Assembly (NCBI RefSeq): GCF_023638035.1
Contig: NZ_JAKRVX010000005.1
Span: 62,001-126,000, forward strand
Length of the DNA: 64,000 bases
Origin: Natronocalculus amylovorans
GTDB taxonomy: Archaea; Halobacteriota; Halobacteria; Halobacteriales; Haloferacaceae
Reading direction: 5' to 3'
This document shows positions 37,905-52,924 of this stretch, in pieces. Every line of letters starts with the position of its first letter. Positions within the stretch are counted from its first letter, which is position 1. A program made the position numbers and the translations under genes. The notes beneath the pieces were generated by a model. That model was not told where the DNA came from. It saw only the letters and a program-made list of their open reading frames with translations, and did no database searches.

Positions 37905-39378
37905 GGCTCTGTTGAAATGGTTAGAAGTTGACATCCTTTCGTGGTCGTGCTGGATATAGAGGTTACATTCAGCAATGTGGTACCTACACTTAAAGTGGAT
38001 ATTGGATCACTATCACCGGTAAATGAAGAGTGGATGAGAGGAACTTTTTCGCAACCCCAATGTGAATAACTTTTAATGACAGAAGATAACGAGAAATCAG
38101 AGAACGAGAAAGAATTTGAACCCACCCCGGAGGACGTTGCGGACGAATTATTCGAATCGAATTTTGAGGAACGTCGAGAGGAGAACCTGGCCCACGCCGA
38201 GTTCGAGGATTGTGAACTAATAAGACAAGCGGGGAACCTGTACCAAGAATCCGAGTTCACAAGCCCCGCTGAAGCGATTGTTCTCGTAAGCGAGGGTCTG
38301 GCGCTTGATCAAGAGGAAGCCACTAGGCTCCTTTCGATCTATACACGTATCTTCACAGAGTTCTCGGGCTACGCTTCGGGTCATGCTGATACCGCCGGTC
38401 GGGAGTTCTTTTCGGGGCGGACAATCGAGGTGACCGCCGAGAACAATGATCGGACTCGAGAAGAAGCTCAGGAGGATGTTGTGGAGTTCGTTGGCGCATA
38501 TATCCGGGAGCACGATGTCGACGAAATCGACCTGGATCAATCACTTCCCAATAATCCATATCGTCCGTATCAAGAACTCTTCGAATCACTACCAGACATG
38601 GATACCTTTTTGAAAGGAATCCAATTTGATATACCGAGAATCGGACATATTCTTCCCCTCATCAAACCGGAAATCGAGTTTCCAGTCGCACCGATTATTG
38701 AAAACTTTAGTCTCCAAGTCGAAGAGATGCGGGAAGCAATTCTCCCCACGTTAGGCGTCTTTGAAGAAGCCAATGTCTACTTTGATGAGGAATTCATTGA
38801 AGCGATTTCCACCGCAGCGTCGTCCCCTCCCGATAATTGGGAATCGTACTCAGTTATCGAAGAGATCGACGAAGAGGAACTTCAGAAAGAACCAGAAGAT
38901 CGGGAAAGTTACGAGGAACAGGGGGCGAAAGCCGTTGCCCAGCTCGGCAACGTCGATACGGAAACAGCACGGGAATTGTATTTGACTTTTTGGAGTTCAA
39001 CCCATGCGGGTGCCGCCGCGATTGGATCCCGTATATCCGACGGTAGGATCGCAGCGATTGCTGCGATAACGACGATTCTCTTCTTATACACGGGAAACAT
39101 TCCGGCGGCGATGGGATTCCTGTTTATTGTGCTCAACAAGGTGTCGAGTCTTTCACCGGATGATGATCCAGCGGAGTAATTCAATAATTTTGAGATTCCG
39201 GAGTGCACTTAATCCATTCAGTACCTCACTAAAGTCCAGTTCGTTCGATCCATCTCCTAAAATATCGGTCGATATGTGGGCTTAGGGATCGGTGATTTCG
39301 TATTGATTTCGGATGCAAGATACGCGCTCTGTATTCAGCAGGACAATCCTGTCACGATTTGAGGGTTTCAACAGCGCC
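37905..39378. mobile_element. 1.47-kb non-autonomous element inserted at an mntA start, with target duplication
   Basis: Ends GGCTCTGTTGAAA (37905) and, inverted, GGCGCTGTTGAAA (39378), one mismatch in 13. The seven bases AGTATGT occur just before (37898-37904) and just after (39379-39385), and the uninterrupted locus at 10354 carries this sequence once. This is strong evidence for transposition as a unit. The only gene inside is at 38076; no transposase is present. Confidence 0.8.
38076..39179 (+). CDS. Passenger gene: acidic 367-aa protein with a C-terminal membrane helix
   Basis: 367 aa, very acidic. The first half is helical (EFEPTPEDVADELFESNFEE, later EEATRLLSIYTRIFTEFSGY). The middle contains DIPRIGHILPLIKPEIEFPV. 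The end has a hydrophobic stretch AAITTILFLYTGNIPAAMGF then LFIVLNK, likely one hairpin or helix. I recognise no domain. As sole cargo of a mobile element it might be a resistance, immunity or toxin-like protein, but nothing in the sequence proves that. The intact frame suggests that it is maintained. Confidence 0.7.
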   Translation: MTEDNEKSENEKEFEPTPEDVADELFESNFEERREENLAHAEFEDCELIRQAGNLYQESEFTSPAEAIVLVSEGLALDQEEATRLLSIYTRIFTEFSGYASGHADTAGREFFSGRTIEVTAENNDRTREEAQEDVVEFVGAYIREHDVDEIDLDQSLPNNPYRPYQELFESLPDMDTFLKGIQFDIPRIGHILPLIKPEIEFPVAPIIENFSLQVEEMREAILPTLGVFEEANVYFDEEFIEAISTAASSPPDNWESYSVIEEIDEEELQKEPEDRESYEEQGAKAVAQLGNVDTETARELYLTFWSSTHAGAAAIGSRISDGRIAAIAAITTILFLYTGNIPAAMGFLFIVLNKVSSLSPDDDPAE

Positions 39379-39381
39379 AGT

Positions 39382-39711
39382 ATGTCCAAATCTGACCATC
39401 CCTCTTTCGAAACAATCGATCTTGATGGGATTCAAACCTACCTCAATCAAACCGAGGTCAGCTTCGCAGTGTTGTCTGGATCACATGCAAGAGGGGTAGC
39501 AGCTGAGTCATCGGATGTGGATATTGCACTTCAGTTCCCAAACGAGCTATCCGATGCCGATCGGTTTCGGCGACGTAACCGTATCGATGCAGACCCTCAA
39601 GTGTATGTGGACGGGTTTGTTGAATTAATGGATGGGCAGCCATCCAAACCAGTCCGATCGGAGCGTGCTAATTTCGGTGTTGGTGAGTCAACTGGATTTG
39701 AAGAGTTGTGA
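39382..39711 (+). pseudogene. mntA: Truncated second mntA copy
   Basis: Begins MSKSDHPSFETIDLDGIQTY as in the intact gene and keeps the motif SGSHARGVAAESSDVD (Phe-Gly changed to Ser-Gly). Similarity stops after VYVDGFV at about residue 81; the remaining codons are unrelated. No hepT follows. With its promoter displaced to 37838 it is probably not expressed normally. Confidence 0.75.
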
Positions 39712-39773: not shown

Positions 39774-40202
39774 TTAGTATCCCGGTTCGATGCGGTCGAT
39801 CAGTCCATCGAAATCAGTATCGAAACTTAATACTGCATCGATACCACGTGACTCACACAGCGCGATGATTGACGCGTCGGTGAAACTGAGGTCATGGTCG
39901 TCGTATCGGCGAAAGACTTCTAAGGACGCCTGAACGTCGTCCGGTTGAACGTGGAGTAGCTCAAAAACGTGAGGAAATGGCTCTTCACCGAGGATTCGAC
40001 TCGCAACGGTGTTCGCGGCCTCGAATGACCCTGTTCGAGCACGTGTAAGCGTCACCGTTTCGTCAAAGATGTAGTCGTTTGTGTACGGCTGTCCGTACTC
40101 TCCATTGAGCAACGCATCGAACGCATCGACGGCGTCGTTGTGCCGAGCCGCATCCGTATCGTGATGCGCGAAGAACACGCCAGTGTCGACGAATACACTC
40201 AT
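39774..40202 (-). CDS. VapC-type PIN ribonuclease toxin
   Basis: 142 aa. PIN acidic residues: Asp in SVFVDTGVFFAHHD, Glu in YIFDETVTLTRA, Asp in LSFTDASIIALCE and Asp in VLSFDTDFDGL. Overlaps the antitoxin-type gene by four bases. Complete, probably an RNase. A decayed copy lies at 11328-11543, confirming a duplicated module. Confidence 0.9.
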   Translation of the reverse strand: MSVFVDTGVFFAHHDTDAARHNDAVDAFDALLNGEYGQPYTNDYIFDETVTLTRARTGSFEAANTVASRILGEEPFPHVFELLHVQPDDVQASLEVFRRYDDHDLSFTDASIIALCESRGIDAVLSFDTDFDGLIDRIEPGY

Positions 40203-40474
40203 CCGTATAGCACGTCGTCGATATCGTCTTCTGTCGTCGTGACGCCTGAGGAGACCATCCCATCGTGAAATCTCTCACGATCAGAGTCAGCAAGCGGAAC
40301 CCGCTCTTTGCGGAAGGAGTTTATGAGGTCGGCCTTCGATTCGATCGCACGCTCGACGAGCCGGGCAAGGATCTCCTGCTGGGTCACTCGTGTCCCCGTT
40401 TCTAGTCGAATCTCGGCCTGTAACCGTTCGATACGAGACTTGGTGTCGTCATCCATCTTCACCGATGTCGCCAT
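40199..40474 (-). CDS. VapB-type antitoxin
   Basis: 91 aa. N-terminal ribbon-helix-helix-like part (MATSVKMDDDTKSRIERLQA and VTQQEILARLVERAIESKAD) for DNA binding, and an acidic tail (SSGVTTTEDDIDDVLYG) to bind the toxin. First gene of the pair. The start at 40474 follows an AT-rich promoter stretch. The copy at 11540-11812 has a nonsense codon. Confidence 0.85.
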   Translation of the reverse strand: MATSVKMDDDTKSRIERLQAEIRLETGTRVTQQEILARLVERAIESKADLINSFRKERVPLADSDRERFHDGMVSSGVTTTEDDIDDVLYG

Positions 40475-41109: not shown

Positions 41110-41139
41110 GTGACGACGCTTAAGTCGTGGAGGACGTCA
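41110..41139 (+). repeat. Orphan IS1341-type right end overlapping a toxin stop codon
   Basis: ACGACGCTTAAGTCGT hairpin followed by GGAGGACGTCA. The last three bases (41137-41139) are, on the minus strand, the TGA stop of the PIN gene. Confidence 0.55.
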
Positions 41140-41649
41140 CTGATCGAATGATTCGAGCTTTCTGACGAGTTGTGTATACAAAGGGGGTGAACAGTACCAG
41201 CCGTGTTCAATCATTGAATCAATACTCTCGTGCGCTTCTGAAATGCTAATATAGCCATGCTTAGCACAAAACAGAATGATGTAGGCTGTCCCCCGAGTGT
41301 CGATTCCTTCAATTTCCGCAGCGGTCCTCCCAGACGTCTCGTCCATTACGGCAATTCCGTCAACCGATGTAACACATCCAAGGACAGCTACGTCAGCGGT
41401 ACTTAGATTAGGATTGCGTTTCAATCGCGTAATAAGTTCAGAGTTATCAACTGAAATTAGTTCAAAACTCCCCGACTCAATACCTTGGTCAACACGGCGA
41501 GCATCAGGATATCCTGATTCAAGCCCAGTGACGACGACCTCTGAGTAGATTTCTTGAGGGATATAACAGGTTCCGTCAAGATGACAGACAAGTTCAATCC
41601 GATCGACTTTTGCAAGATAAATAAGCGGTGTTGCGTCGAAAACCCACAT
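41137..41649 (-). CDS. PIN-domain toxin (DUF3368-like)
   Basis: 170 aa. Begins MWVFDATPLIYLAKVDRIEL with the first PIN Asp; Glu in PQEIYSEVVV, Asp in LSTADVAVLGCV and Asp in GIAVMDETSGRTAAE follow. The EIYSEVV and DETSGRTAAE patterns fit the DUF3368 group of PIN proteins. The ATG directly follows the partner's stop (TGAATG). Its own stop lies within a TnpB-type right end, so the C-terminus may have been trimmed. Confidence 0.85.
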   Translation of the reverse strand: MWVFDATPLIYLAKVDRIELVCHLDGTCYIPQEIYSEVVVTGLESGYPDARRVDQGIESGSFELISVDNSELITRLKRNPNLSTADVAVLGCVTSVDGIAVMDETSGRTAAEIEGIDTRGTAYIILFCAKHGYISISEAHESIDSMIEHGWYCSPPLYTQLVRKLESFDQ

Positions 41650-41940
41650 TCACAGCTCCTCAAGATCGCCTTCAAGATGCTCACCAGAAACCCACGTAAT
41701 GTCATGCTCTTTGGCGAACTGGGCGAATTCCCAAACGGACATATCAGCAAGCTGAGCTGCCTTCATAAAGGTGATTTCATCAGCACCGAGACGTTTGAGT
41801 GCTTGCTCACGACGCCACTGCTCAAGGCCCTCTGATAAGAGTTTTCTGACGGCTGTACTCCGGTCTATCCGTTCTTTCTTAAGATACTCTTCAAGATCCC
41901 CTTCGAGTTCATCTGGAACCCTCGTAGATATTGTTCCCAT
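41650..41940 (-). CDS. UPF0175-type antitoxin with ribbon-helix-helix
   Basis: 96 aa from the ATG at 41940 (MGTISTRVPDELEGDLEEYL). The ribbon-helix-helix continues with IDRSTAVRKLLSEGLEQWRR, then the UPF0175-like part DEITFMKAAQLADMSVWEFA. It pairs with the DUF3368-like PIN gene in a toxin-antitoxin unit and probably autoregulates. An upstream in-frame start at 41982 is less likely. Confidence 0.82.
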   Translation of the reverse strand: MGTISTRVPDELEGDLEEYLKKERIDRSTAVRKLLSEGLEQWRREQALKRLGADEITFMKAAQLADMSVWEFAQFAKEHDITWVSGEHLEGDLEEL

Positions 41941-42168
41941 ACAGTATACTATGTTTACAATGTATACAAATGCTTTGGTCATCTAAAAATAGACCAATAA
42001 GGGGCTCTAGTAAGTGAACACGAGAGAATATTTCGATACGATACGAACAAATCTCAAGGCTATGGTTCCCGCTTGTTTGGCCAACCCTGCATCTTGGAAC
42101 GCTCGAATATCTGAATGGAGAGAAGTGGCGCCCAAACTCTTATTTTTGGCTCGAACGTATCTTGAAGT

Positions 42169-42372
42169 ATGAGTACAATGCGAAAAATCAGCCTCATTGA
42201 AGACGCGGAAGGTGGTTGGTCCGCGATCGACGAGGAACTTGGTGTTGCGAGCCAAGGGGAAACTCGATCAGAAGCACTCGAAAATTTGGACGAGGCAGTC
42301 GAGCTAACGCTTGAAGCACGAGCTGATGAAGCGGGATATCCGGAACCCGATGCACCGTGGTTTGATTCGTGA
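42169..42372 (+). CDS. hicB: HicB antitoxin
   Basis: 67 aa. The HicB fold is seen in SLIEDAEGGWSAIDEELGVA and SQGETRSEALENLDEAVELT. The first is a partly degraded RNase H-like core that blocks HicA. No C-terminal DNA-binding domain is present, as in short archaeal HicBs. Overlaps hicA by four bases (GTGA), antitoxin first. Confidence 0.87.
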   Translation: MSTMRKISLIEDAEGGWSAIDEELGVASQGETRSEALENLDEAVELTLEARADEAGYPEPDAPWFDS

Positions 42373-42620
42373 GCAATCCACCACGTGATTTTTCCGGAAA
42401 AGAACTAGTTAATGTCCTTACGGGCTTCGGCTATTACCGCGATCGTCAACGGGGTAGCCACGTCATTCTCAAATATACGAATCCAGACACTGGTGAGAAA
42501 CGAACCGTGACCGTTCCGCTTCACGATCGAATTAAAATAGGAACTCTGCAATCGATCGCCGACCAATGTGGGGCTGAAAACTTTCACTTGTGGTGTGAGT
42601 GGATTGACGAACACCGCTAA
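42369..42620 (+). CDS. hicA: HicA mRNA interferase toxin
   Basis: 83 aa from a GTG start. dsRBD-like HicA fold: SGKELVNVLTGFGYYRDRQR, GSHVILKYTNPDTG with the catalytic His, and VTVPLHDRIKIGTLQSIADQ. HicA toxins cleave mRNA. Complete, likely active. DNA from 42621 to 42903 has no gene. Confidence 0.9.
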   Translation: MSNPPRDFSGKELVNVLTGFGYYRDRQRGSHVILKYTNPDTGEKRTVTVPLHDRIKIGTLQSIADQCGAENFHLWCEWIDEHR

Positions 42621-42903: not shown

Positions 42904-43746
42904 TTACCCGTGGACACCATCTGTCGCTGTATCCGTTGGTGAGTCACCGACCTCTCCGGGGATTGCAGCATCACTCGGGATGAGCAGACGACGCTCTGTG
43001 TATGAGAGCCCATTCTTTCGTTCGGTCTTGCGACTAATAGCAACCCGATTCTTTGTCAGGTCTAACAGTGCGTCGAATACTCGTGAGACTAACTTCTTCG
43101 CGTAGGTTTTTGAGATCCCTCGATCTTGCCGACGTATCCAGTGTCTGAGGTCGCTTGATTTCACATACTCACGAATCGATCGTGAGCCACGCTTCCAAGG
43201 GCTGTCACCAACAGTATCGTCTTCCCGTGCTTTCCACAACTTCGCTGCAAGCCGTGCAGGCCGCGAGGAAGTCATCGATCGCAGCATATCATCATCAACG
43301 CGTGCAAGCTGCTGGATCGGAAGCAGATCCGCATGTGCAAGCGTAATGTTTCCACCTCGATCAAGCGGATCTTCCCCATTCGGGAGCCGAAAGTACTGCT
43401 TCCCATCATCCTTGGTGATCTTTTCGAGGCGACCGTCGTGGACGTCGATCGTCTGAGAATCAACGTTCTCTCTTTCAAGATGTGCACCTTTCTCAAGCTC
43501 ACGTGCTTGCAGCTCCTCAACTCGCTCTTTGTTCACTTGTGATTTCTTCGCGATCGCGTCTGTCTTCGCATCTGTTGCGTTAAATCGACGTTCGTACTCC
43601 GAGAGAGTGCTTCGAAGCCGATCGTTTTCAGCTTCGACCTTCTCAACTCGGTGTTTTAATTGCTCATGCTCAGCGACTGTCGCTTCAAGTTTGGATACCC
43701 GATCGAGGAGCTGTGTGATAGTCTCTCGGAGCGGTCCGATCGTCAT
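42904..43746 (-). CDS. Coiled-coil protein of the RAMP cluster
   Basis: 280 aa. Residues about 10-85 form a long coiled coil (ITQLLDRVSKLEATVAEHEQ, LKHRVEKVEAENDRLRSTLS). The C-terminal half is compact and basic: LRHWIRRQDRGISKTYAKKL, VSRVFDALLDLTKNRVAISR, then ERRLLIP, which looks like a winged helix binding nucleic acid. It is downstream of the HNH gene on the same strand with a 312-base gap. Similar coiled-coil proteins accompany haloarchaeal RAMP modules as I recall them. The role is unknown. Confidence 0.65.
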   Translation of the reverse strand: MTIGPLRETITQLLDRVSKLEATVAEHEQLKHRVEKVEAENDRLRSTLSEYERRFNATDAKTDAIAKKSQVNKERVEELQARELEKGAHLERENVDSQTIDVHDGRLEKITKDDGKQYFRLPNGEDPLDRGGNITLAHADLLPIQQLARVDDDMLRSMTSSRPARLAAKLWKAREDDTVGDSPWKRGSRSIREYVKSSDLRHWIRRQDRGISKTYAKKLVSRVFDALLDLTKNRVAISRKTERKNGLSYTERRLLIPSDAAIPGEVGDSPTDTATDGVHG

Positions 43747-44058
43747 TTTGCTACCTCCACTTGAGCCGATCGGGATTGTACCTCACTCGATTCTGGTGTG
43801 AGGATTGGATGTTCGGTATCGTTGCTATGCGGACTCTGTTGCTGTCGTGTTACTCTCATCGTGTAGTGTGATGGACACAGATTGAGCCTCCGGTAGGCGA
43901 CACGTCTGTGCCACTGTATCGTGCGTAGTTATCTCTCTGTACGGTCTTGCGACTCTGACTGCAGTGTAGGCTGGCCGATCGGCGTGCGTCCTCGAATGTA
44001 GTGAAAAAATCTAGTGTGTCGGAGACACGCTCTCAACCATCCAGCGTCGGTCTATCAC

Positions 44059-44802
44059 CTACTCCGTGTCAGTGTCCTCCTTTCGCGGTCTGCCAGCACT
44101 ACTTTCGAGCGCATCAAGCGGGAATTTGTATGCAAGCGCTCGTTTCTCTTTATGCAAGACCGTTCGTGGTGCGATACCAAACACTTCAGCAACGAGGTCC
44201 CGATCTCCAGTTCGTTCTAATGCTCGATACACGCGCTCGTCATGTATGCGCTGGATCAGACGCTGGTCACTCTCTGGAATGCGACCACGCTCTGGATGGT
44301 CGATCTGTCCTGATAATCCCCACTTGCCAGTCTTGACATCTTGATTAATGAGTGGTTCATCTACGTCTGGGATGATCTCTGAGAGGCCCATCATCACCCA
44401 GCACCGCTCTCTGACCGCGGGATGAGTCAAGTCTGCTGTTAATTCATCTTTCAGTTCAGGTGTTGACAGCAGTCCCTTCTTGTGGAGTATGCTGATAATC
44501 TCGAAATCATGTGGAAGCATTTTATTTGCTGCTTCCTCGCTGACGTCGATCGGCAACGCCTCTTGCTGGGGCTGTTTGTGGGTCCAATTGTGACATTGAA
44601 TGCATAGTACGGTAAGATTCTCCTCATCGTGCACATCGTATCCCTCGGGATCATACGTCTGATGGTGAACTTCTAAGATTTTGTTTCCGCCTTTTTCAAT
44701 ACCGCGTCCACCACAGAGTTCGCACTTGTAATTCTCCCGACGGAGCATCTTTTTGCGAACATTTGACGGAACATTCTCGCGGTCAGGATTGCCAGACGCC
44801 AT
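44059..44802 (-). CDS. HNH endonuclease of the RAMP cluster
   Basis: 247 aa from the ATG at 44802 (a GTG at 44829 is the alternative). HNH core at residues about 18-75: YKCELCGGRG, the HH pair in ILEVHHQTYDPEGYD, and LTVLCIQCHNWTHK with the second Cys pair. This is a zinc-stabilised beta-beta-alpha-metal nuclease. The C-terminal 160 residues contain DRDLVAEVFGIAPRTVLHKE, a helix-turn-helix look. It is separated by 275 bases from the five-gene operon upstream, so it may have its own promoter. It is the clearest DNA-cutting enzyme in the cluster. Confidence 0.85.
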   Translation of the reverse strand: MASGNPDRENVPSNVRKKMLRRENYKCELCGGRGIEKGGNKILEVHHQTYDPEGYDVHDEENLTVLCIQCHNWTHKQPQQEALPIDVSEEAANKMLPHDFEIISILHKKGLLSTPELKDELTADLTHPAVRERCWVMMGLSEIIPDVDEPLINQDVKTGKWGLSGQIDHPERGRIPESDQRLIQRIHDERVYRALERTGDRDLVAEVFGIAPRTVLHKEKRALAYKFPLDALESSAGRPRKEDTDTE

Positions 44803-45104
44803 TAGTTCGTCCCTCCTATCGATCGGCACTGCGGTTGGTGAGTTGGGTTGCTTCGTTTCTGTCGGCTACTTCGTGGAATTGTGTTTATTTCTTCCATGTC
44901 TTGTTGTCTGTTTGTTGATTGTCGATCGGTGCAAACCGCGGGTAGTGATGGTGTATCGCTTCAATATCTGTCTCTGCTCGTGGTCACGGCTGATCAGACG
45001 CCCTTTTGCATCCTTGATCAGAGTGGCACACGGTGACTGGTACATCCAAATGATGTCTCATAGCGTCGCCGTCGCCTGAGATCACCCCCTCCGACGTCAC
45101 GGGA

Positions 45105-45797
45105 TTACAGCCGATCACCTCTGGTTGGGCTGAGTGATTTCAGCGTGAAATCCGATCGGCTACAGTACGACTCGGCGACCGTTCCGATCGCAGCTGTCCG
45201 GCAGATATCGGCGAGATTGTGCAGACACAAGTCTGTAAAATTACCCTCCTCAAATGCACGTACTGCCTCATCACTATCGACAAATGGGTCAATTTCCGAA
45301 TCATCGCCATCGACAAGCGCACGATATGCATGTGCCAGCGTGTTCTGTTCAGCGTCTGCAGCCGTGGTGTTGAATTGCTTCTCCACGATCGGGAGCAGGT
45401 CCGTATAGGCCACATCCACAAACGGCCATGGCTCGCCAATCCGAGACAGGCGTGTGCGCAGGAATGGAAGATCAAATCCGCCACTCCAACTCTCGCCATT
45501 GTAGGCAACTAACACTACATCTTCATCCTTCAGCCGATCGCGACAGAATGCATCCACCGCTCGAATCAAATCCGTCTCCGTTGTGTGGAGCGACACAACT
45601 GTGTGCTTGCTTGACTCCGATCGAACCGCTGCCTCTACATCGATATTATCGACATCTTCTCGTCCAGCTGTTTGGCAGAATATCCGAGCACCCAATGGGA
45701 GCATGAAGCCGATTGCGGTCACCTCGTCAGTTATCTCAAAACCTGTTGTTTCGATATCGAATGCAATCTGCGTCAGCAGTGATGATGTATCCGCCAT
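45105..45797 (-). CDS. DEDD-family 3'-5' exonuclease (RNase H fold) of the RAMP cluster
   Basis: 230 aa. Exo I motif QIAFDIETTGFE (Asp and Glu), Exo II region YNGESWSGGFDLPFLRTRLS, and a late Asp in LCLHNLADICRTA. This is the DnaQ-like fold of polymerase-B-type exonucleases. Stop/start overlap with the RAMP gene (TAATG), last gene of the tight operon. It might trim guide RNA or degrade target; no direct evidence. The final Exo III motif is not textbook, so activity is probable but unproved. Confidence 0.8.
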   Translation of the reverse strand: MADTSSLLTQIAFDIETTGFEITDEVTAIGFMLPLGARIFCQTAGREDVDNIDVEAAVRSESSKHTVVSLHTTETDLIRAVDAFCRDRLKDEDVVLVAYNGESWSGGFDLPFLRTRLSRIGEPWPFVDVAYTDLLPIVEKQFNTTAADAEQNTLAHAYRALVDGDDSEIDPFVDSDEAVRAFEEGNFTDLCLHNLADICRTAAIGTVAESYCSRSDFTLKSLSPTRGDRL

Positions 45798-46780
45798 TAT
45801 GCGTCCTCCATGCGCTGTGGGGTTGCCGATCGAACAGCAGCGGCCCTTGTTTGGGTTGCTGCAGACGAGCCATCCATCTCTGTGACGCGATCGACCGTTG
45901 CTGGGCGAACCCGAAACTCGCCAAAGCCAATCTTTGAATGTGTCCCAATACGGTTGATTCCATTCCGGGCAGTCTCGATCGGGGCATCACCAACATACCG
46001 AACGGTTTGCCCGTGATCAATCGTCTGCACGTCATAACAGTGGTCGCCAAACGCCAACTTCGTCTGTCGTTCTCGAAGCAGCTGCTCGGTCTCCCACCAC
46101 CATGGAACCGATTGATCATCGCCACTGGGATGCTCACTGTGCAATACGTACGGCGAGTAGAGATCGATCTCAAACGTATCACTCGCATGCAGACTTGCGT
46201 ACGAGAGCTCATCCAGATCGATCAACTGGGTATCAACAAGCGTCAGCTGGCCCAATCCAAAATTCCGGCCCCCACCAACCTGTATTTCATCAAGATCGTC
46301 ATCTTCGATCGGGAGGATATCCCTACGTTGACGGTCATAGGCCTGTAAATAACAGTGGATATGCACCTTGACCGTTCGCTTGTATCTTCGTCCACCGGGT
46401 GGCCGGCCGAATCGACATTGGGGAGCAACCGCAATCCGCCCACCATGGTTCTCCAATGTCAGGCAGTTATGCACCTCACGTGCTCGACTGTCTAACAACC
46501 ACCGCTGGGCAGCATCTCTGAAGATGAACAGATCCTCATAGCGCTCTACATCCGGCAAACTGGTCGAGTAGATCGATCGACGACTCTCGTCAGTGGCGGC
46601 TGGTATCTGTCCATACTCGCCAACGAACAGCGATCCCATGCTTACGCGAAGGTTGCTGGCAACCGCTCCTGGAACCGATTGTGCGATCGCAGCATACAGC
46701 GCATTCCCGCTCACGTAGTAGGGATGGCCATAGTAGCTGGTGTCCAACTCAAACAGCACTGACTGGATCTGTGAGCTCAT
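45797..46780 (-). CDS. RAMP-fold protein with two glycine-rich loops (Cas5/Cas6-like)
   Basis: 327 aa. Two glycine-rich segments typical of RAMP (ferredoxin-like) proteins: EIQVGGGRNFGLGQLTLVDT near residues 165-185 and INRIGTHSKIGFGEFRV near 275-292. The N-terminus (YGHPYYVSGNALYAAIAQSV) also suits a RAMP-type start. A basic stretch (RPPGGRRYKRTVKVHIH) could bind RNA. It overlaps the upstream gene by four bases (ATGA). Two loops suggest a duplicated fold as in Cas6. No CRISPR array is present for it to process. Confidence 0.65.
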   Translation of the reverse strand: MSSQIQSVLFELDTSYYGHPYYVSGNALYAAIAQSVPGAVASNLRVSMGSLFVGEYGQIPAATDESRRSIYSTSLPDVERYEDLFIFRDAAQRWLLDSRAREVHNCLTLENHGGRIAVAPQCRFGRPPGGRRYKRTVKVHIHCYLQAYDRQRRDILPIEDDDLDEIQVGGGRNFGLGQLTLVDTQLIDLDELSYASLHASDTFEIDLYSPYVLHSEHPSGDDQSVPWWWETEQLLRERQTKLAFGDHCYDVQTIDHGQTVRYVGDAPIETARNGINRIGTHSKIGFGEFRVRPATVDRVTEMDGSSAATQTRAAAVRSATPQRMEDA

Positions 46781-47610
46781 GCAACGTCACCTCCAGTGGA
46801 TGTCTCGTTACTTGCCTTCCATGGCGGCAACACTCCTGCGCGATCGTACACAACGTCTTCAATATATTGCAGTGCAACCGACCACGATCGAATCCGTCGC
46901 AACTGTGCATCCAGAATCCGTGCCTGCCGATCGCCGTCTACAGCCAACGGGTGAGCTGGAAGCTGTGACCACCGATCGGCAAACGAGCGCGCTGGTGCAT
47001 TGCCAAGCCGAACCGATTGCTCATCACCCTTGTCTGGCGAGAGATGCAACACCATCACCGGTGTCCAACAAATCGTCTCATGCGCCCGAACACGATCGGA
47101 CGCAAGTGCTCGATCGGACAGCGGTTCATATTCTGGTTTTGCATCCGGATCACCACGCTCTGCGACGATCGAGAGCTCATCAAATGTGTACCCCGCTCGG
47201 TACCATCGATACAATGCGGCAACAAGCAGCGTGTGGTATTTGAGGGATGTGTATGGGTAGTACACAGACTCGGTGATTCCAGCGGCCGTCTGACTCGTGA
47301 GCCATGCCGCATGTAGTTCCGCTGCATCAGAGGGCATCACAAGCGGGTCCAACACCTCAGAAGAGGTGTCCAGTTGGCGAACCGGCTCACCAGTGAGCAA
47401 TGAGAGTCGCTCCGGCGACACATGATTCGCCAAAACCTGTGTTGGCTCCCCATGCGGTCGACTAAGCAACGCTGCATCAGCATCCGCCCCAAACGGAACC
47501 TCCTCGTTGATCGGCACGCCACGGTACGACCGGAACCCCGACGCATGGCTCCGACCTCGGAGCTTGTGTACGTCATGTCGATATGCACGACACAGTGCTT
47601 CATCGCTCAT
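46777..47610 (-). CDS. Unknown protein in the RAMP operon
   Basis: 277 aa with four-base overlaps on both sides. No recognisable domain. Visible segments: YRHDVHKLRGRSHASGFRSY (basic start), a helical middle (SLKYHTLLVAALYRWYRAGY), TPVMVLHLSPDKGDEQSVRL and a helical end (ARILDAQLRRIRSWSVALQY). By position between two RAMP genes it could be a large- or small-subunit equivalent (Cas8/Cas11-like) of a ribonucleoprotein complex; this is inference. Confidence 0.6.
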   Translation of the reverse strand: MSDEALCRAYRHDVHKLRGRSHASGFRSYRGVPINEEVPFGADADAALLSRPHGEPTQVLANHVSPERLSLLTGEPVRQLDTSSEVLDPLVMPSDAAELHAAWLTSQTAAGITESVYYPYTSLKYHTLLVAALYRWYRAGYTFDELSIVAERGDPDAKPEYEPLSDRALASDRVRAHETICWTPVMVLHLSPDKGDEQSVRLGNAPARSFADRWSQLPAHPLAVDGDRQARILDAQLRRIRSWSVALQYIEDVVYDRAGVLPPWKASNETSTGGDVA

Positions 47611-48629
47611 TTCGAATCACCACCCGAATTCTCCTTGCTGGCCGATCGAGTCTCGAGGCTCTCGCCCAACTCTCCGTCTTCGTTACTCAGACGGTGCTGT
47701 AATGCTTCGACAAAGCTATCTCGTAATCCCTCGCGCCAGAGTTCGTCTTTCTTCTCCATCGACTGTGTGGGCCCCTGTGCGCGATTGTAGACACGCCGTA
47801 CCTCTGCATCCGAATACAGTGGATTGATCACGTTCGCATGGACAATGCCTGCACCGAAATTCCGCGATCCGCCTAACTGCATTGAATATGTGTCATTATT
47901 CGATTTGAGATAGCACACTGCCTCACAAATCAATCCCACATACTCTGGGCGGAGTTCTCGGAGCGTCAGTCGCCACGTCCCGTCCAGATTTCCAACCGCA
48001 TCCTGTGTCGCATGCCGGAGTGGTTGGCCTTCATCCGCCTCATTCCGCGATCGGACATGTGTATTCAGCTGTCGATAATGTGCTTCGGCTTCGCCTTTGA
48101 GGACATCTACATGCCGGCGGATCGGCGAAAACCCGATCGGCCGACGAATTAGCTTCCCTGCCTGATGGCCAAACCCACCAAACAAGTCATACACAACGCA
48201 CGTGCTGGTTGGCATCGGGAACTTGGATTCTCCATCACGACGGTCTGGATCGCAGCTTCCTTTCTCGTGATAGCCCGCCGCCAAATCCCGATCGTACACA
48301 TCTTTGAGTTTGAAATCCGCATTCGGCTCACCGGGATGGCATGCTGTGACGCCAGCGATATGATGCACTCGCTCACAGCCATGTCGCAGCCATCCACTCA
48401 ACGTGAACGGCGAGATCTGGCCTGCTATTTGGTTCATCGGGTCATCCGCCTCATACCGATCGGCCGAGGCATGATGTCGATCGGTGATAATCCCGTCACC
48501 GGGCGCTAACAATCCAATATTGAGTCCAACGTAGATATCCGGGAACGTTGTCTCCGAGATGTCGACAGGGAGGTCGAATTCCATCGGAAGGTGATCACTC
48601 TCAAACCCGCGATCGTCGTCCGATCGCAT
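47607..48629 (-). CDS. Cas7/Csf2-like RAMP protein
   Basis: 340 aa. IYVGLNIGLLAPGDG opens the fold and SPFTLSGWLRHGCERVHHIA matches the loop after the first helix in Cas7-type proteins (usually IPGSSLKG-like). KFPMPTSTCVVYDLFGGFGH comes next, and MQLGGSRNFGAGIVHANVIN is the glycine-rich loop near the end of the core. Cas7 proteins form the helical backbone on guide RNA. The C-terminal 60 residues are a charged helical tail. The strongest RAMP candidate of the cluster, similar in layout to type IV Csf2. Confidence 0.7.
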   Translation of the reverse strand: MRSDDDRGFESDHLPMEFDLPVDISETTFPDIYVGLNIGLLAPGDGIITDRHHASADRYEADDPMNQIAGQISPFTLSGWLRHGCERVHHIAGVTACHPGEPNADFKLKDVYDRDLAAGYHEKGSCDPDRRDGESKFPMPTSTCVVYDLFGGFGHQAGKLIRRPIGFSPIRRHVDVLKGEAEAHYRQLNTHVRSRNEADEGQPLRHATQDAVGNLDGTWRLTLRELRPEYVGLICEAVCYLKSNNDTYSMQLGGSRNFGAGIVHANVINPLYSDAEVRRVYNRAQGPTQSMEKKDELWREGLRDSFVEALQHRLSNEDGELGESLETRSASKENSGGDSK

Positions 48630-48631
48630 GG

Positions 48632-49210
48632 TCAGTGCTCCCCTCTTTCAGTTATCGAGTTTCTTGATTCAGAGCCGTCCGCGATCGGATCACACAGCTC
48701 TGTCATATTCGTTGTTGAGTCTTCCTCGTACGCTGTGTTTACATCTGCTGCGATGCGATCGCCATATGTCCATCCACCATCGCCAGCGGTTGGCAATGTC
48801 GTTTGAAAACCATCTGTCTGTTCAGTGGGTCCACAAACCCGTGTGAGTTCTGTCGACCCAGTACGTGAAACCGCAACGATCGCTTCGCCAAGAAAGACCG
48901 GCCACGATGTCTGCATTGCCTGATCTGCGCACCGTGCCATCCGACCGCGTACGAGCACCGCGTCTCGCTCGTCCGTAAAGTCGTCCGGACAATCAGGATG
49001 GTCCGCACATCGTAGCCCATCAATCGTGTAGCAATCCGACTCTGCCGATCGGCTGAAACACGCTATAACCGGCGATCCAGCCGTTACTCTGCGGGAGCAC
49101 GCTTCGCACAGCGCCTCCCCTTCCCCGAGAAAATTTATTTTCAGTTGATATATTTCTTCAATTAAGTTGTGTTCAACAGTCTTTTTTATTATTGGTCCGT
49201 TTATTCTCAT
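48632..49210 (-). CDS. Cys-rich, zinc-finger-like first gene of the RAMP operon (Csf1-like by position)
   Basis: 192 aa. The first ~30 residues are encoded by AT-rich DNA (MRINGPIIKKTVEHNLIEEI), unlike the rest. Cys residues follow: ALCEACSRRV, VIACFSRS, SDCYTID and LRCADHPDCPDDF, enough for one or two zinc sites. Type IV Csf1 proteins also carry a Cys-rich zinc site, which with the Csf2-like neighbour makes the comparison reasonable, but sequence similarity is not shown. First gene of the unit; an AT-rich promoter region lies at 49211-49320. Confidence 0.55.
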   Translation of the reverse strand: MRINGPIIKKTVEHNLIEEIYQLKINFLGEGEALCEACSRRVTAGSPVIACFSRSAESDCYTIDGLRCADHPDCPDDFTDERDAVLVRGRMARCADQAMQTSWPVFLGEAIVAVSRTGSTELTRVCGPTEQTDGFQTTLPTAGDGGWTYGDRIAADVNTAYEEDSTTNMTELCDPIADGSESRNSITERGEH

Positions 49211-49926: not shown

Positions 49927-51174
49927 TCAGAAAACTTCTAGCGATTCTACGGCAGTCTGTACATCTTCAGTAATAGTGGCAACAAAGTCCTCATAGCTCG
50001 GTTTATCCAGATTAAGGCTGAGGACACAGAGTTCTTGATCATTACTCAGTTGATAGACCCGAGGCTCAGGCACCACACTAGGAGGATATAATAAGATGCC
50101 GGGAGCGTGCTCATGTGTAGAATATGATAATACCTGGTACACGTCCTGCTTGCTTGGGGTTGATACATCCTTCCATTTAACGTCTCCGACAAGAACACTG
50201 CCCCCATTGAGTTGAGCAATAATATCCGGTTGCATAGGTCTACCGAGAGGTTGATCATCTGATCGTCGCTTCGCCAAATAGCCAATATTACGCTTCGTGA
50301 CGGTTATTTTCGAGTTATCAAAAACGGCTTTTACAGCACGCCGGGCAACCATTTCAAAGAGATTGTCCATATTCAGGAGGAACGTCGCTCCAGCGCCAGC
50401 TCCGGCATGCAGATTTTCAATAGAAGTTTGCCGGATCACCATATTCGCAATCTTTAGTGCCGTTTCGTACGTGGAAGTGAGTCTCATTTGTGAGGAAATA
50501 GTCTGCAGGCTATGTATGGGAACTTTCCTCTGTGAAACCCCTGCATCCTTGAGTATGGTAATCTGCCGGTTAAGACGATGAGTTATTTTGTCACCTGAAT
50601 GTAGTCGTGTGAGGATAATAGCAGCATGTACGAGCGTCTGATTCAGAGTCGAATCATAACTGAGCTCAGAGTAATCACACTCAAATTCAGTCGAAATAGG
50701 TCCTCTCTTCTGGAGTTGACGATGGAGGTTTATTTTCCCTCTTACCTGTTTTCTGCTCTCATTCTGATTGACGTATTCAGGCCGGATACCTCGTTGAAGC
50801 ACTCGCTGTAGAATTGAAGAATAATAGTAGGCAATGAGACGCGTGAACTCTGAATCGTCAGCGACCTCATAACTAGCCTTTTCAAGATACGAGTCTGGAG
50901 GTGCGCCGATTCCGAAACGAACCAAATTCAGGAGCTCCAATTCAACTTTGGGCCGGATACGTAGAACAGTACCACTAGGTAAGGAGACAGTCCCAACGTG
51001 CCTTTTGGAAGTAATCTTAAATCTCTCAGATGAGTAAGGTTTAACATCAAGCTTCGTGACCTTCTTACCGTCAGAGTTACGGTTTATTTTCTGGTTGATA
51101 TACTCTAAATCTTGGGTACTCAGTGATAATGGGTCAGAAGGGACCCATTCACGAAGCGGTTCTTCAGTCACCAT
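49927..51174 (-). CDS. mcrC: McrC, nuclease subunit of the McrBC modification-dependent system
   Basis: 415 aa from the ATG at 51174; a GTG one codon earlier overlaps the mcrB stop. N-terminal McrC beta domain (VGTVSLPSGTVLRIRPKVEL, near 60-80), the NKVRGKI-like block (ESRKQVRGKINLHRQLQKRG), then the PD-(D/E)XK site: MQPDIIAQLNGGSVLVGDVK plus WK. In McrBC, McrC joins the McrB ring, stimulates its hydrolysis and cuts DNA bearing modified cytosines or other bases. Complete. Confidence 0.93.
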   Translation of the reverse strand: MVTEEPLREWVPSDPLSLSTQDLEYINQKINRNSDGKKVTKLDVKPYSSERFKITSKRHVGTVSLPSGTVLRIRPKVELELLNLVRFGIGAPPDSYLEKASYEVADDSEFTRLIAYYYSSILQRVLQRGIRPEYVNQNESRKQVRGKINLHRQLQKRGPISTEFECDYSELSYDSTLNQTLVHAAIILTRLHSGDKITHRLNRQITILKDAGVSQRKVPIHSLQTISSQMRLTSTYETALKIANMVIRQTSIENLHAGAGAGATFLLNMDNLFEMVARRAVKAVFDNSKITVTKRNIGYLAKRRSDDQPLGRPMQPDIIAQLNGGSVLVGDVKWKDVSTPSKQDVYQVLSYSTHEHAPGILLYPPSVVPEPRVYQLSNDQELCVLSLNLDKPSYEDFVATITEDVQTAVESLEVF

Positions 51175-51176
51175 CA

Positions 51177-52745
51177 CTATGTATCAACTAATCCACGGAG
51201 TGTCTGGTCAAGATTTTCAAGAGTGAAGTCACTTCGAAATTCTGGACGAGATGGGTGAGTAAGCTGTTCATCAACTTCGGCAAAGACCTGATCGCGGATT
51301 CGGTAGAAATCACCGAAGTAGTACTCCTCTATCAGCGGGAGAATCTCATATTTCCACGCGTCGTGTAGACTTTCTAAGTCATACTCTTGGGGTTCAGAAT
51401 CCGATAACAGATACGAGTGACCGATCTGCTTTCCTTGCCCTAAATCAACCGCGTCGAGAATTCTGTCGTTGATCACTTCGAGAGCATCAATGGAGTTTAG
51501 TTGGAGACGACGTTCAAGATTGGTCGGCTGTTCATCCTGTCCAGACATACTGTAGACTTCACGGAGATATTCGTAATCAGGACCGAATCGGATAAACCGA
51601 AATCGTCGGCGGATCGCAGAGTCAATTAGCGCGATAGACTGGTCAGACGTGTTCATCGTTCCAATGATGTAGAGGTTTGGGGGGACAGAGAATTCCTTAT
51701 CTTTGGAGTGTGCGAGTGTGATTTTTTCGCCACGTTTGTCTTTCTCAAGTAGCGTGACTAACTCTCCGAATACCTGCGATATATTGGCTCTATTCATTTC
51801 ATCAATTACTAAAACATACTTATTGGCGTTTTTTTTTCGGGCACTATTCTCGTATTCCTCCCTCGCCAATTCGCAGGTGTCTTTGAATATACCGGGTCGA
51901 AGTTCATACCGCAAATTATGTTCACTATTCTCATCCGAGCTGTCCGCAGATACGCTCAATCCTTCTATAAAGTCCTCATAAGTGAATGATGGATGGAATG
52001 TGACTTTCTGGAGATTCTCAGTGGTTGGTTCATTATTCTGTTGTCCAAGCCATGCTTTGGCATATTGAAGTGCGTGGTAAGTTTTTCCAGTTCCAGGTGG
52101 TCCATAAAATACAACCTGGCCTTTTGATTCTAACTGCCGAATAGTCTCCCTATACCTTTCTTCGTCCTCTATTGTAGGAATATCAAGTGGTCGACTGGTA
52201 TCCTGATTCGGTATGTGTTTCTTGACGTATTCTTCCACAGTGTCGTAGTCTTCCCTAATCGCCTCCATCGCAGGGTTATCGAGCCGTTGGAAGGAATGAG
52301 GTCCTTCAGAGACATATTCGTAATAAGTTGCGAGTTCTTTAGTCGTGATCTCTATTTCAACTGGGTTTTGTAAATAAATCAGGCGGTCACCAATTCCGCT
52401 GGATTTGGCTAACGAATCTTCATCTGGGTCGGGGAAAATATACCCTGCGAGTTTGCGATTTTCCTCTCGTCCAATAACCTTCGCTGCTGTATTATAATAG
52501 GGATTCTCATCTGGTTCATTCCGAGTATAAAAAAGAAGATAATCTCCCTTACTCACTTTAGACCAACTGCCTTCTTCTTCCTCCGTTGTTGCCCATAACC
52601 GTACTACACCTCTATCCGTGTGGGGTGGGGGTGGTTCTATATCAAGTTCATCAATCGAGATACCAGATTTAACTGTACGCAGAAGCCGTTCACGCGCTTC
52701 TGCTGAATCACATGGCACTAGAAAAATTGTGGATTGGTTTACCAT
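51177..52745 (-). CDS. mcrB: McrB, AAA+ motor with an N-terminal EVE-like reader domain
   Basis: 522 aa from the ATG at 52745. Residues about 1-140 look like an EVE/PUA-type domain (STIFLVPCDSAEARERL, GDYLLFYTRNEPDENPYYNT), which in such fusions reads modified bases. The AAA+ part has Walker A VVFYGPPGTGKTYHAL, Walker B YVLVIDEMNRANISQVFGEL and the McrB signature IIGTMNTSDQSIALIDSAIR followed by RRFRF. Known McrB uses GTP. Promoter shared with the divergent gene at 52925. Confidence 0.92.
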   Translation of the reverse strand: MVNQSTIFLVPCDSAEARERLLRTVKSGISIDELDIEPPPPHTDRGVVRLWATTEEEEGSWSKVSKGDYLLFYTRNEPDENPYYNTAAKVIGREENRKLAGYIFPDPDEDSLAKSSGIGDRLIYLQNPVEIEITTKELATYYEYVSEGPHSFQRLDNPAMEAIREDYDTVEEYVKKHIPNQDTSRPLDIPTIEDEERYRETIRQLESKGQVVFYGPPGTGKTYHALQYAKAWLGQQNNEPTTENLQKVTFHPSFTYEDFIEGLSVSADSSDENSEHNLRYELRPGIFKDTCELAREEYENSARKKNANKYVLVIDEMNRANISQVFGELVTLLEKDKRGEKITLAHSKDKEFSVPPNLYIIGTMNTSDQSIALIDSAIRRRFRFIRFGPDYEYLREVYSMSGQDEQPTNLERRLQLNSIDALEVINDRILDAVDLGQGKQIGHSYLLSDSEPQEYDLESLHDAWKYEILPLIEEYYFGDFYRIRDQVFAEVDEQLTHPSRPEFRSDFTLENLDQTLRGLVDT

Positions 52746-52924
52746 AATGACGCGAGGAGATTGGAGCGCCCCGATAAAAAAATACCGAACGACGGGTTGA
52801 TCAACCAATTGGTAAGAGGATGATTGAACAAATTTTTATCAATCACACGAGTTGAGTGGAGTATACCGAACTAAATATATCCGCCCGGCATTGACGAAAA
52901 TTTGCTTCGGACTTAAATCAACAC

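What the first reader, a model, noticed from the sequence alone, without database searches (positions are those of the whole stretch)
42904..49210. RAMP-protein cluster with HNH and DEDD nucleases but no CRISPR array or adaptation genes
Five overlapping minus-strand genes encode a Cys-rich protein, a Cas7/Csf2-like RAMP, an unknown protein, a RAMP with two glycine loops and a DEDD exonuclease. An HNH nuclease and a coiled-coil protein follow. The glycine-rich loops (LGGSRNFGAGIVHANVIN; EIQVGGGRNFGLGQLTL; IGTHSKIGFGEFRV) are seen directly. From memory this matches the HRAMP modules noted in haloarchaea in CRISPR-Cas classification work, whose function is open. An array-less RAMP complex with two nucleases suggests guides taken from elsewhere, or guide-independent RNA/DNA sensing.
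Basis: partly seen in the sequence, partly recalled or inferred. Interest (0 to 1): 0.9.

Follow-up and report, generated by a model that had tools for sequence, protein, structure and literature searches.

The report
HRAMP operon; relatives hide an RNA
The genes are a haloarchaeal HRAMP locus, a known CRISPR-derived system without a CRISPR array and of unknown function; comparison with relatives shows that many HRAMP operons, though not this one, carry a structured, stop-free RNA element between two core genes that may be the guide or scaffold RNA the system seemed to lack.

Summary
Window 44059-49210 (- strand) is an HRAMP operon: Zn-ribbon protein, Cas7, conserved unknown (U277), Cas5, DEDD exonuclease, then HNH. 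The Cas7 model matches solved Cas7s (35 PDB hits E<=0.001, all from class 1 effectors of types III, IV, VII, I-D). Cas5 relatives match Cmr3 (25 of 27). Both nucleases keep their active sites. No CRISPR array or adaptation gene lies nearby; the coiled-coil gene is not part of the module. HRAMP was published in 2019, so the locus is a new member of a known kind.

New here: in about 23 of 37 HRAMP loci of the window's clade, U277 and Cas5 are separated by 108-595 bp unlike a normal gene. One frame is open end to end and nearly all indels are multiples of three, yet substitutions ignore codon position. The stretch carries covarying hairpins (loop GUGGUG) and/or copies of CACTKGAAACGGGGTGTG, almost absent elsewhere. 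This is a candidate in-operon guide or scaffold RNA for a system called array-less. A held-out plasmid locus shows the same features.

The window lacks this cassette, and no copy was found in its genome. Six of 18 near-complete HRAMP genomes lack Cas1 and Cas6, so borrowing CRISPR guides cannot be general. No function has been shown for HRAMP or the cassette.

The parts
48632..49210 (-). Cys-rich protein (192 aa), Cys-x2-Cys plus a distal Cys, likely zinc-binding; first gene of the operon
   Evidence: C35, C38, C68 invariant in 21 relatives; homologue upstream of Cas7 in the clade-A loci; no Pfam/NCBIfam/PADLOC hit
47607..48629 (-). Cas7 homologue (340 aa), backbone-type RAMP with invariant DRHHAS-type loop and LGG-RNFG glycine loop
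   Evidence: AlphaFold2 model pLDDT 76; Foldseek PDB: 35 hits E<=0.001, all class 1 CRISPR effector entries of types III, IV, VII, I-D; PADLOC Csm3 in 18 of 34 family members, best 3.4e-6 over the Csm3 models
46777..47610 (-). U277: conserved uncharacterised HRAMP protein (277 aa)
   Evidence: Present in nearly all HRAMP loci of both clades; confident model pLDDT 88; best PDB fold matches are Cas10/Csm1 but not significant, E 0.05-0.5; no profile-profile match to Cas10
45797..46780 (-). Cas5 homologue (327 aa, Cmr3-like) with two glycine loops
   Evidence: PADLOC Cmr3 matches 25 of 27 family members, best 8.8e-9; G169-R172-N173-G175-G177 and G279-H281-G285-G287-E288 invariant; not folded here
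45105..45797 (-). DEDD-type 3'-5' exonuclease (230 aa), overlaps Cas5 by 1 nt
   Evidence: Pfam RNase_H_2 1.6e-5; D14, E16, D109, H193, D197 invariant in 17 relatives; optional, absent in some clade-A loci
44059..44829 (-). HNH nuclease (256 aa), putative DNA-cutting effector
   Evidence: Pfam HNH 4.7e-4, NCBIfam IscB-type HNH region 9e-9; C36, C39, H55, H56, N71, C76, C79, H80 invariant in 20 relatives; its slot holds a different conserved protein (candidate PD-(D/E)XK) in 7 loci, never both

Best explanation
The locus is an HRAMP module of the DEDD+HNH clade: a derived type-III-like effector that has lost the CRISPR adaptation genes and array. Most likely Cas7 subunits polymerise on an RNA, Cas5 caps one end, U277 and the Zn-ribbon protein complete the particle, and recognition of invading nucleic acid recruits or activates the HNH (in relatives, a different) nuclease to cut DNA, while the DEDD exonuclease trims the bound RNA or degrades cut ends. 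Shown: gene content, Cas7 fold, Cas5 family, intact active sites, absence of an array nearby, frequent defence-gene neighbours. Inferred: assembly on RNA, target recognition, nuclease activation, and that the outcome is defence. In many relatives the RNA may be the stop-free structured cassette between U277 and Cas5; the window lacks it, so its RNA source is unknown (cellular RNA, or crRNAs of the genome's own type I CRISPR-Cas).
For: Cas7 fold and Csm3 profile matches; Cas5/Cmr3; conserved DEDD and HNH residues; conserved operon; two different nuclease-slot proteins exchange at one place and are never both present; defence neighbours: McrBC next to the window operon, BrxL upstream of Cas7 in 7 of 38 clade-A loci; literature calls HRAMP an array-less, type-III-derived putative defence system with HNH or PD-(D/E)xK nucleases.
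Against: No function is shown for any HRAMP. The window lacks the RNA cassette and has no array nearby, so no guide is identified for it. Several related operons also lack the cassette, so it is not universally needed. DEDD is missing in some loci. U277's role is unknown.
Confidence: 0.55

Rival explanations
1. HRAMP works with a dedicated RNA encoded inside the operon: the stop-free cassette between U277 and Cas5 is processed and bound as scaffold or fixed guide. It is innate, not adaptive, because cassette sequence is shared across genera.
For: GUGGUG hairpins with covarying stems: 32 double-changed cells against 11.6+-2.7 in shuffles, slid controls far lower. Repeat CACTKGAAACNGGGTGTG: all copies found in about 80 loci lie in or at the border of this stretch; 15 of 18 exact matches in 99 genomes lie there, no match for the reversed control pattern. 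One open frame and in-frame indels with no codon-position bias. All three reading phases of the repeat occur. Held-out plasmid DL31 agrees.
Against: Absent from the window and about a dozen clade-A loci, and from all clade-B loci with both genes called; no RNA data; no phage match to one cassette; the handle-like TTGAAAC is only a resemblance.
Confidence: 0.35
2. The cassette is a cis-regulatory or translational-coupling element: ribosomes must read through it to reach Cas5, and its hairpins or HRAMP binding tune expression.
For: One frame open end to end, with start and stop codons overlapping the flanking genes (GTGA/ATGA junctions) in many loci; sequence constrained only at RNA level.
Against: Copy-number variation of repeats (1 to 5) and hairpins is unusual for a simple coupling element; many operons do without it.
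Confidence: 0.3
3. HRAMP borrows crRNAs from the host's CRISPR arrays.
For: The window's genome has Cas1, Cas6 and further cas genes with two long arrays on another contig.
Against: 6 of 18 near-complete HRAMP-bearing genomes lack both Cas1 and Cas6.
Confidence: 0.12
4. The operon is a decaying or domesticated remnant without nuclease activity.
For: Shortened HNH protein in the window and loss of DEDD or cassette in some relatives.
Against: Catalytic residues of both nucleases invariant; intact overlapping ORFs; third-position excess in compared U277 and Cas5 pairs of relatives shows purifying selection.
Confidence: 0.05

Closest known systems
HRAMP (haloarchaeal RAMP; Makarova et al. 2019, doi 10.1093/femsle/fnz079, described in PMC8730458 and PMC12669027)
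   Same: Diverged Cas5 and Cas7 homologues, nucleases (HNH), uncharacterised proteins, no array, haloarchaea
   Different: No difference in kind for the window locus. The in-operon RNA cassette of relatives is not mentioned in the passages on HRAMP of the two reviews searched; the original paper could not be read
Type III CRISPR-Cas effectors (Csm/Cmr)
   Same: Cas7 fold and Csm3 profile matches, Cas5 matches Cmr3; U277 weakly resembles Cas10 in fold only
   Different: No Cas10 recognised, no array, no Cas6, no cOA effectors in the operon; extra HNH and DEDD nucleases
Type IV and type VII CRISPR-Cas
   Same: Cas7 structural matches (Csf2, type VII Cas7) as good as type III; compact effectors without adaptation genes
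   Different: No DinG or Cas14 found in the operon; type VII has an associated CRISPR array (PMC12669027), HRAMP does not
ARAMP of Asgard archaea
   Same: Described as array-less and distantly related to HRAMP (PMC8730458, PMC12669027)
   Different: Most ARAMPs carry a Cas1 form (PMC8730458); none is found here. Not compared directly

Membership tests
HRAMP | Diverged Cas7 homologue | tested here: met
   Foldseek 35 PDB hits E<=0.001, all class 1 CRISPR effector entries, mostly Cas7 chains; Csm3 profiles
HRAMP | Diverged Cas5 homologue | tested here: met
   Cmr3 profiles match 25 of 27 members; window protein itself 4.3e-4; structure not predicted
HRAMP | Additional uncharacterised conserved protein | tested here: met
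   U277 between Cas7 and Cas5 in both clades; no Pfam family
HRAMP | Associated nuclease, most often HNH or PD-(D/E)xK | tested here: met
   HNH with intact motif; a different conserved protein in the same slot in 7 relatives, taken as PD-(D/E)XK from sequence and literature only (no library hit)
HRAMP | No CRISPR array or adaptation genes at the locus | tested here: met
   No array in 64 kb; the genome's only Cas1 match is on another contig
HRAMP | Found in haloarchaea | tested here: met
   Nearly all named relatives are Halobacteria (one is a 3-kb contig binned as Elusimicrobia); window genome shares family and order with unnamed HRAMP-bearing relatives
Type III CRISPR-Cas | Cas10 large subunit | tested here: inconclusive
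   No sequence or profile match to Cas10; U277 fold resembles Cas10 only weakly
Type III CRISPR-Cas | CRISPR array at the locus supplying guides | tested here: not met

The most novel reading that the evidence does not exclude
HRAMP is not RNA-less. Many HRAMP operons carry an in-frame, stop-free RNA cassette between U277 and Cas5 that is constrained as RNA and not as protein, made of GUGGUG-loop hairpins and handle-like repeats, and this RNA is the built-in guide or scaffold of an innate, non-adaptive CRISPR-derived defence complex. The window's own HRAMP would be a cassette-less branch that relies on another RNA.
Probability: 0.35. Interest if true: 0.9.

Novelty: new member of a known kind. 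Interest (0 to 1): 0.62.

Why it matters
HRAMP has been a named but unexplained CRISPR derivative since 2019, and its missing guide is the central puzzle. A conserved structured RNA inside the operon gives a concrete, testable candidate for that missing part, and cassette-bearing and cassette-less operons offer natural controls. If the RNA is bound by Cas7, HRAMP would show how a CRISPR effector can turn from adaptive to fixed-guide innate immunity. An RNA element kept free of stop codons but not constrained as a peptide would also be unusual in itself.

Tried and rejected
1) The U277-Cas5 gap as plain stop-ridden noncoding DNA: rejected, one frame is open throughout in almost every locus. 2) The gap as an ordinary protein gene: rejected as main reading, since substitutions are even over codon positions and mostly nonsynonymous while flanking genes show third-position excess, and the repeat is read in different frames. 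3) The gap as an adaptive CRISPR array: not supported, its sequence is shared across genera, repeats are short and spacings irregular, no phage match for one cassette. 4) Known RNA family: no Rfam hit in six loci. 5) Trans copies of the cassette in the window's genome: none found. 6) U277 as a Cas10 remnant: top PDB fold hits are Csm1 but not significant and hhalign found nothing; left open. 7) Coiled-coil gene as part of the module: rejected. 8) HRAMP Cas7 in IMG/VR viral contigs: none. 9) Direct PDB sequence search for Cas7, Cas5 and U277: no relevant hits. 10) Whole-cassette RNAalifold on few sequences gave no net covariation bonus; the covariation claim rests on the hairpin family. One row of A10 (L029) used wrong-strand coordinates and is ignored. 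The script hit its time limit, so fold z-scores exist only for the loci it printed.
Full report
OBSERVATION. From Cas7 to the exonuclease the genes overlap by 1-4 nt. The window has no tRNA and no repeat array. The same gene order recurs in many haloarchaeal genomes: 24 of 99 sampled relatives have a Cas7 match, some partial, and 79 loci were drawn from the GTDB collection.

IDENTITY. The 340-aa protein: AlphaFold2 on 34 homologues gives pLDDT 76, and Foldseek finds 35 PDB matches with E<=0.001, all class 1 CRISPR effector entries (types III, IV, VII, one I-D), mostly Cas7 chains. Csm3 profiles match up to 18 of 34 members. The 327-aa protein: Cmr3 (Cas5) profiles match 25 of 27 members, best 8.8e-9; it was not folded. 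The 230-aa protein keeps D14-E16-D109-H193-D197 and matches RNase_H_2. The 256-aa protein keeps a complete HNH motif. The 192-aa protein has an invariant Cys-x2-Cys. The 277-aa protein (U277) has no family; its confident model (pLDDT 88) finds Csm1/Cas10 as its top fold matches, but with E 0.05-0.5 and TM up to 0.41, and hhalign against 14 Cas10 sequences finds nothing. I treat Cas10 ancestry of U277 as an open hint.

KNOWN OR NOT. HRAMP is described in PMC8730458 as haloarchaeal Cas5 and Cas7 homologues with nucleases and uncharacterised proteins, and in PMC12669027 as array-less, derived from type III, with HNH or PD-(D/E)xK nucleases. The original paper (fnz079) is not held. The window locus meets the features I could test, so it is a new member of a known kind.

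CLADES. A tree of Cas7+U277+Cas5 separates clade A (window-like, with the Cys-rich protein, usually DEDD, and HNH) from clade B (L081 onward except L114; about 50% Cas7 identity). In clade A the nuclease slot holds either HNH or, in 7 loci (L044, L045, L047, L048, L053, L065, L080), a different conserved protein of about 246 aa, never both. I take it for the PD-(D/E)XK nuclease of the literature, but no library hit supports that. BrxL of BREX ends about 1 kb upstream of Cas7 in 7 of 38 clade-A loci; in the window McrB/McrC-like genes (49927-52808) are next door. These neighbours fit a defence role.

THE CASSETTE. In the window U277 and Cas5 overlap. In about 23 of 37 clade-A loci with both genes they are separated by 108-595 bp. 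Facts: (1) At least one frame is open over the inner part in all 16 loci tested; in most it begins at a GTGA/GTGATG overlap with the U277 stop and ends at the Cas5 start. In the other loci the printed frames show the same apart from L079, where the called U277 end is shifted. (2) Between relatives the indels are multiples of three, apart from a few that sum to multiples of three or sit at alignment edges. (3) Substitutions are even over codon positions and mostly nonsynonymous, for example L071/L063 [21,24,26] with 11 syn/41 nonsyn, while the flanking genes show third-position excess (U277 [30,11,83]). In most pairs overall gap identity is at or above that of third positions in the flanks; L053/L061 is an exception on the Cas5 side. 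(4) Repeat 1, about CACTKGAAACNGGGTGTG, occurs 1-5 times; allowing 2 mismatches, all hits in 1.34 Mb lie in the gap, except one in a decayed locus lacking U277/Cas5 calls (L047) and one just inside a long Cas5 ORF call (L074). In 99 genomes 15 of 18 exact matches lie in HRAMP gaps, with no match for the reversed control pattern. (5) The repeat is read in all three phases (LETGC, TGNGVC, HWKQGV). The variant CACTTGAAAC, which would give a stop in the TGNGVC phase, was not seen there (0 of 19; 8 of 13 in the LETGC phase, loci with a single open frame; not corrected for kinship). (6) Seven loci carry CGTGGTGG in hairpins: of 22 distinct octamers taken without regard to stems, 19 have at least 7 of 8 arm positions paired; pair counts show 32 double changes against 11.6+-2.7 in shuffles, covariation 0.65 against 0.27, and slid controls at most 0.24. 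GTGGTG hairpins with stems of 7 or more: 13 observed, 0.07 in dinucleotide shuffles. (7) Held-out plasmid CP002989 (DL31): 327-bp unannotated gap, one open frame, two repeats found only there, one 7/8 hairpin. A second held-out plasmid (Haloarcula halobia) has a 112-bp gap without the repeat. (8) No Rfam family. A Halorubrum-type cassette with a different repeat unit occupies the same gap in six loci and was not tested for covariation.

READING. The stretch is constrained as RNA and apparently read through by ribosomes, but not constrained as a peptide. Its place inside an operon of Cas7/Cas5 RNA-binding proteins makes it a candidate guide or scaffold; the repeat's TTGAAAC resembles a CRISPR 5' handle, which is only a resemblance. 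Against a universal role: the window, about a dozen clade-A loci and the clade-B loci with both genes called lack it.

GUIDES FROM ELSEWHERE. The window's genome has Cas1 and Cas6 with further cas genes and arrays on another contig; from its gene content I judge it type I-B. By my count, of 18 near-complete genomes with a full HRAMP Cas7, 9 have Cas1 and 6 have neither Cas1 nor Cas6 (G001, G024, G029, G056, G075, G094). Borrowing crRNAs is possible in the window's host but cannot be the general mechanism. The cassette has no detectable copy in the window's genome.

MECHANISM. Best supported: an RNA-bound Cas7 filament capped by Cas5, with U277 and the Zn protein, that recruits an exchangeable DNA nuclease; DEDD trims RNA or ends. 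Shown: parts, folds or families, active sites, neighbourhood. Inferred: RNA binding, targeting, activation, defence.

Noticed in passing
window 49927-52808 (-): McrC-like and McrB-like restriction genes directly upstream of the HRAMP operon, same strand, supporting a defence-island setting.
   Followed up: partly
window 39774-40474, 41137-41982 and 42369-42620: PIN-domain gene with a small upstream partner, a DUF3368 gene with an upstream partner, and a HicA-type toxin gene next to HRAMP: a cluster of likely toxin-antitoxin genes.
   Followed up: partly
window 39313-39711 (+): Short nucleotidyltransferase (Polbeta/NTP_transf_2) ORF, possibly part of a toxin-antitoxin type pair or truncated.
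   Followed up: no
G000:C1 30000-59999 (L042, L043): cas gene set (Cas3-, Cas5-, Cas7-, Cas8-, Cas6-, Cas4-, Cas1-like; type I-B by my reading) flanked by two long arrays with repeat GCTTCAACCCGTCTACGGTCCTTCTGTAAC.
   Followed up: partly
L022, L024 between Cas7 and U277 (also 150-300 bp spacing in L044, L045, L048, L049, L051, L053, L057, L061, L064, L065, L074): In L022 and L024 an extra small acidic ORF with a duplicated ELAxPV-(E/D)I-MPVG-like motif, apparently a short adaptor peptide; absent in the window. The other loci have a gap there that was not read closely.
   Followed up: partly
L055, L056, L063, L066, L069, L071 (mostly Halorubrum) U277-Cas5 gap: A different repeat unit (CGATATGGTC-N-GCGGTGAGTC) with about 150-nt copy-number steps in the same stop-free gap; not folded or tested for covariation.
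   Followed up: partly
L047 (Halosimplex salinum): Decayed HRAMP: Cys-rich gene, Cas7, one cassette repeat and the alternative nuclease-slot gene remain; no U277, Cas5 or DEDD called.
   Followed up: no
L046, L054, L059, L060, L072, L073, L079: BrxL of a BREX system about 1 kb upstream of HRAMP Cas7, suggesting functional or insertion-site linkage of BREX and HRAMP.
   Followed up: partly
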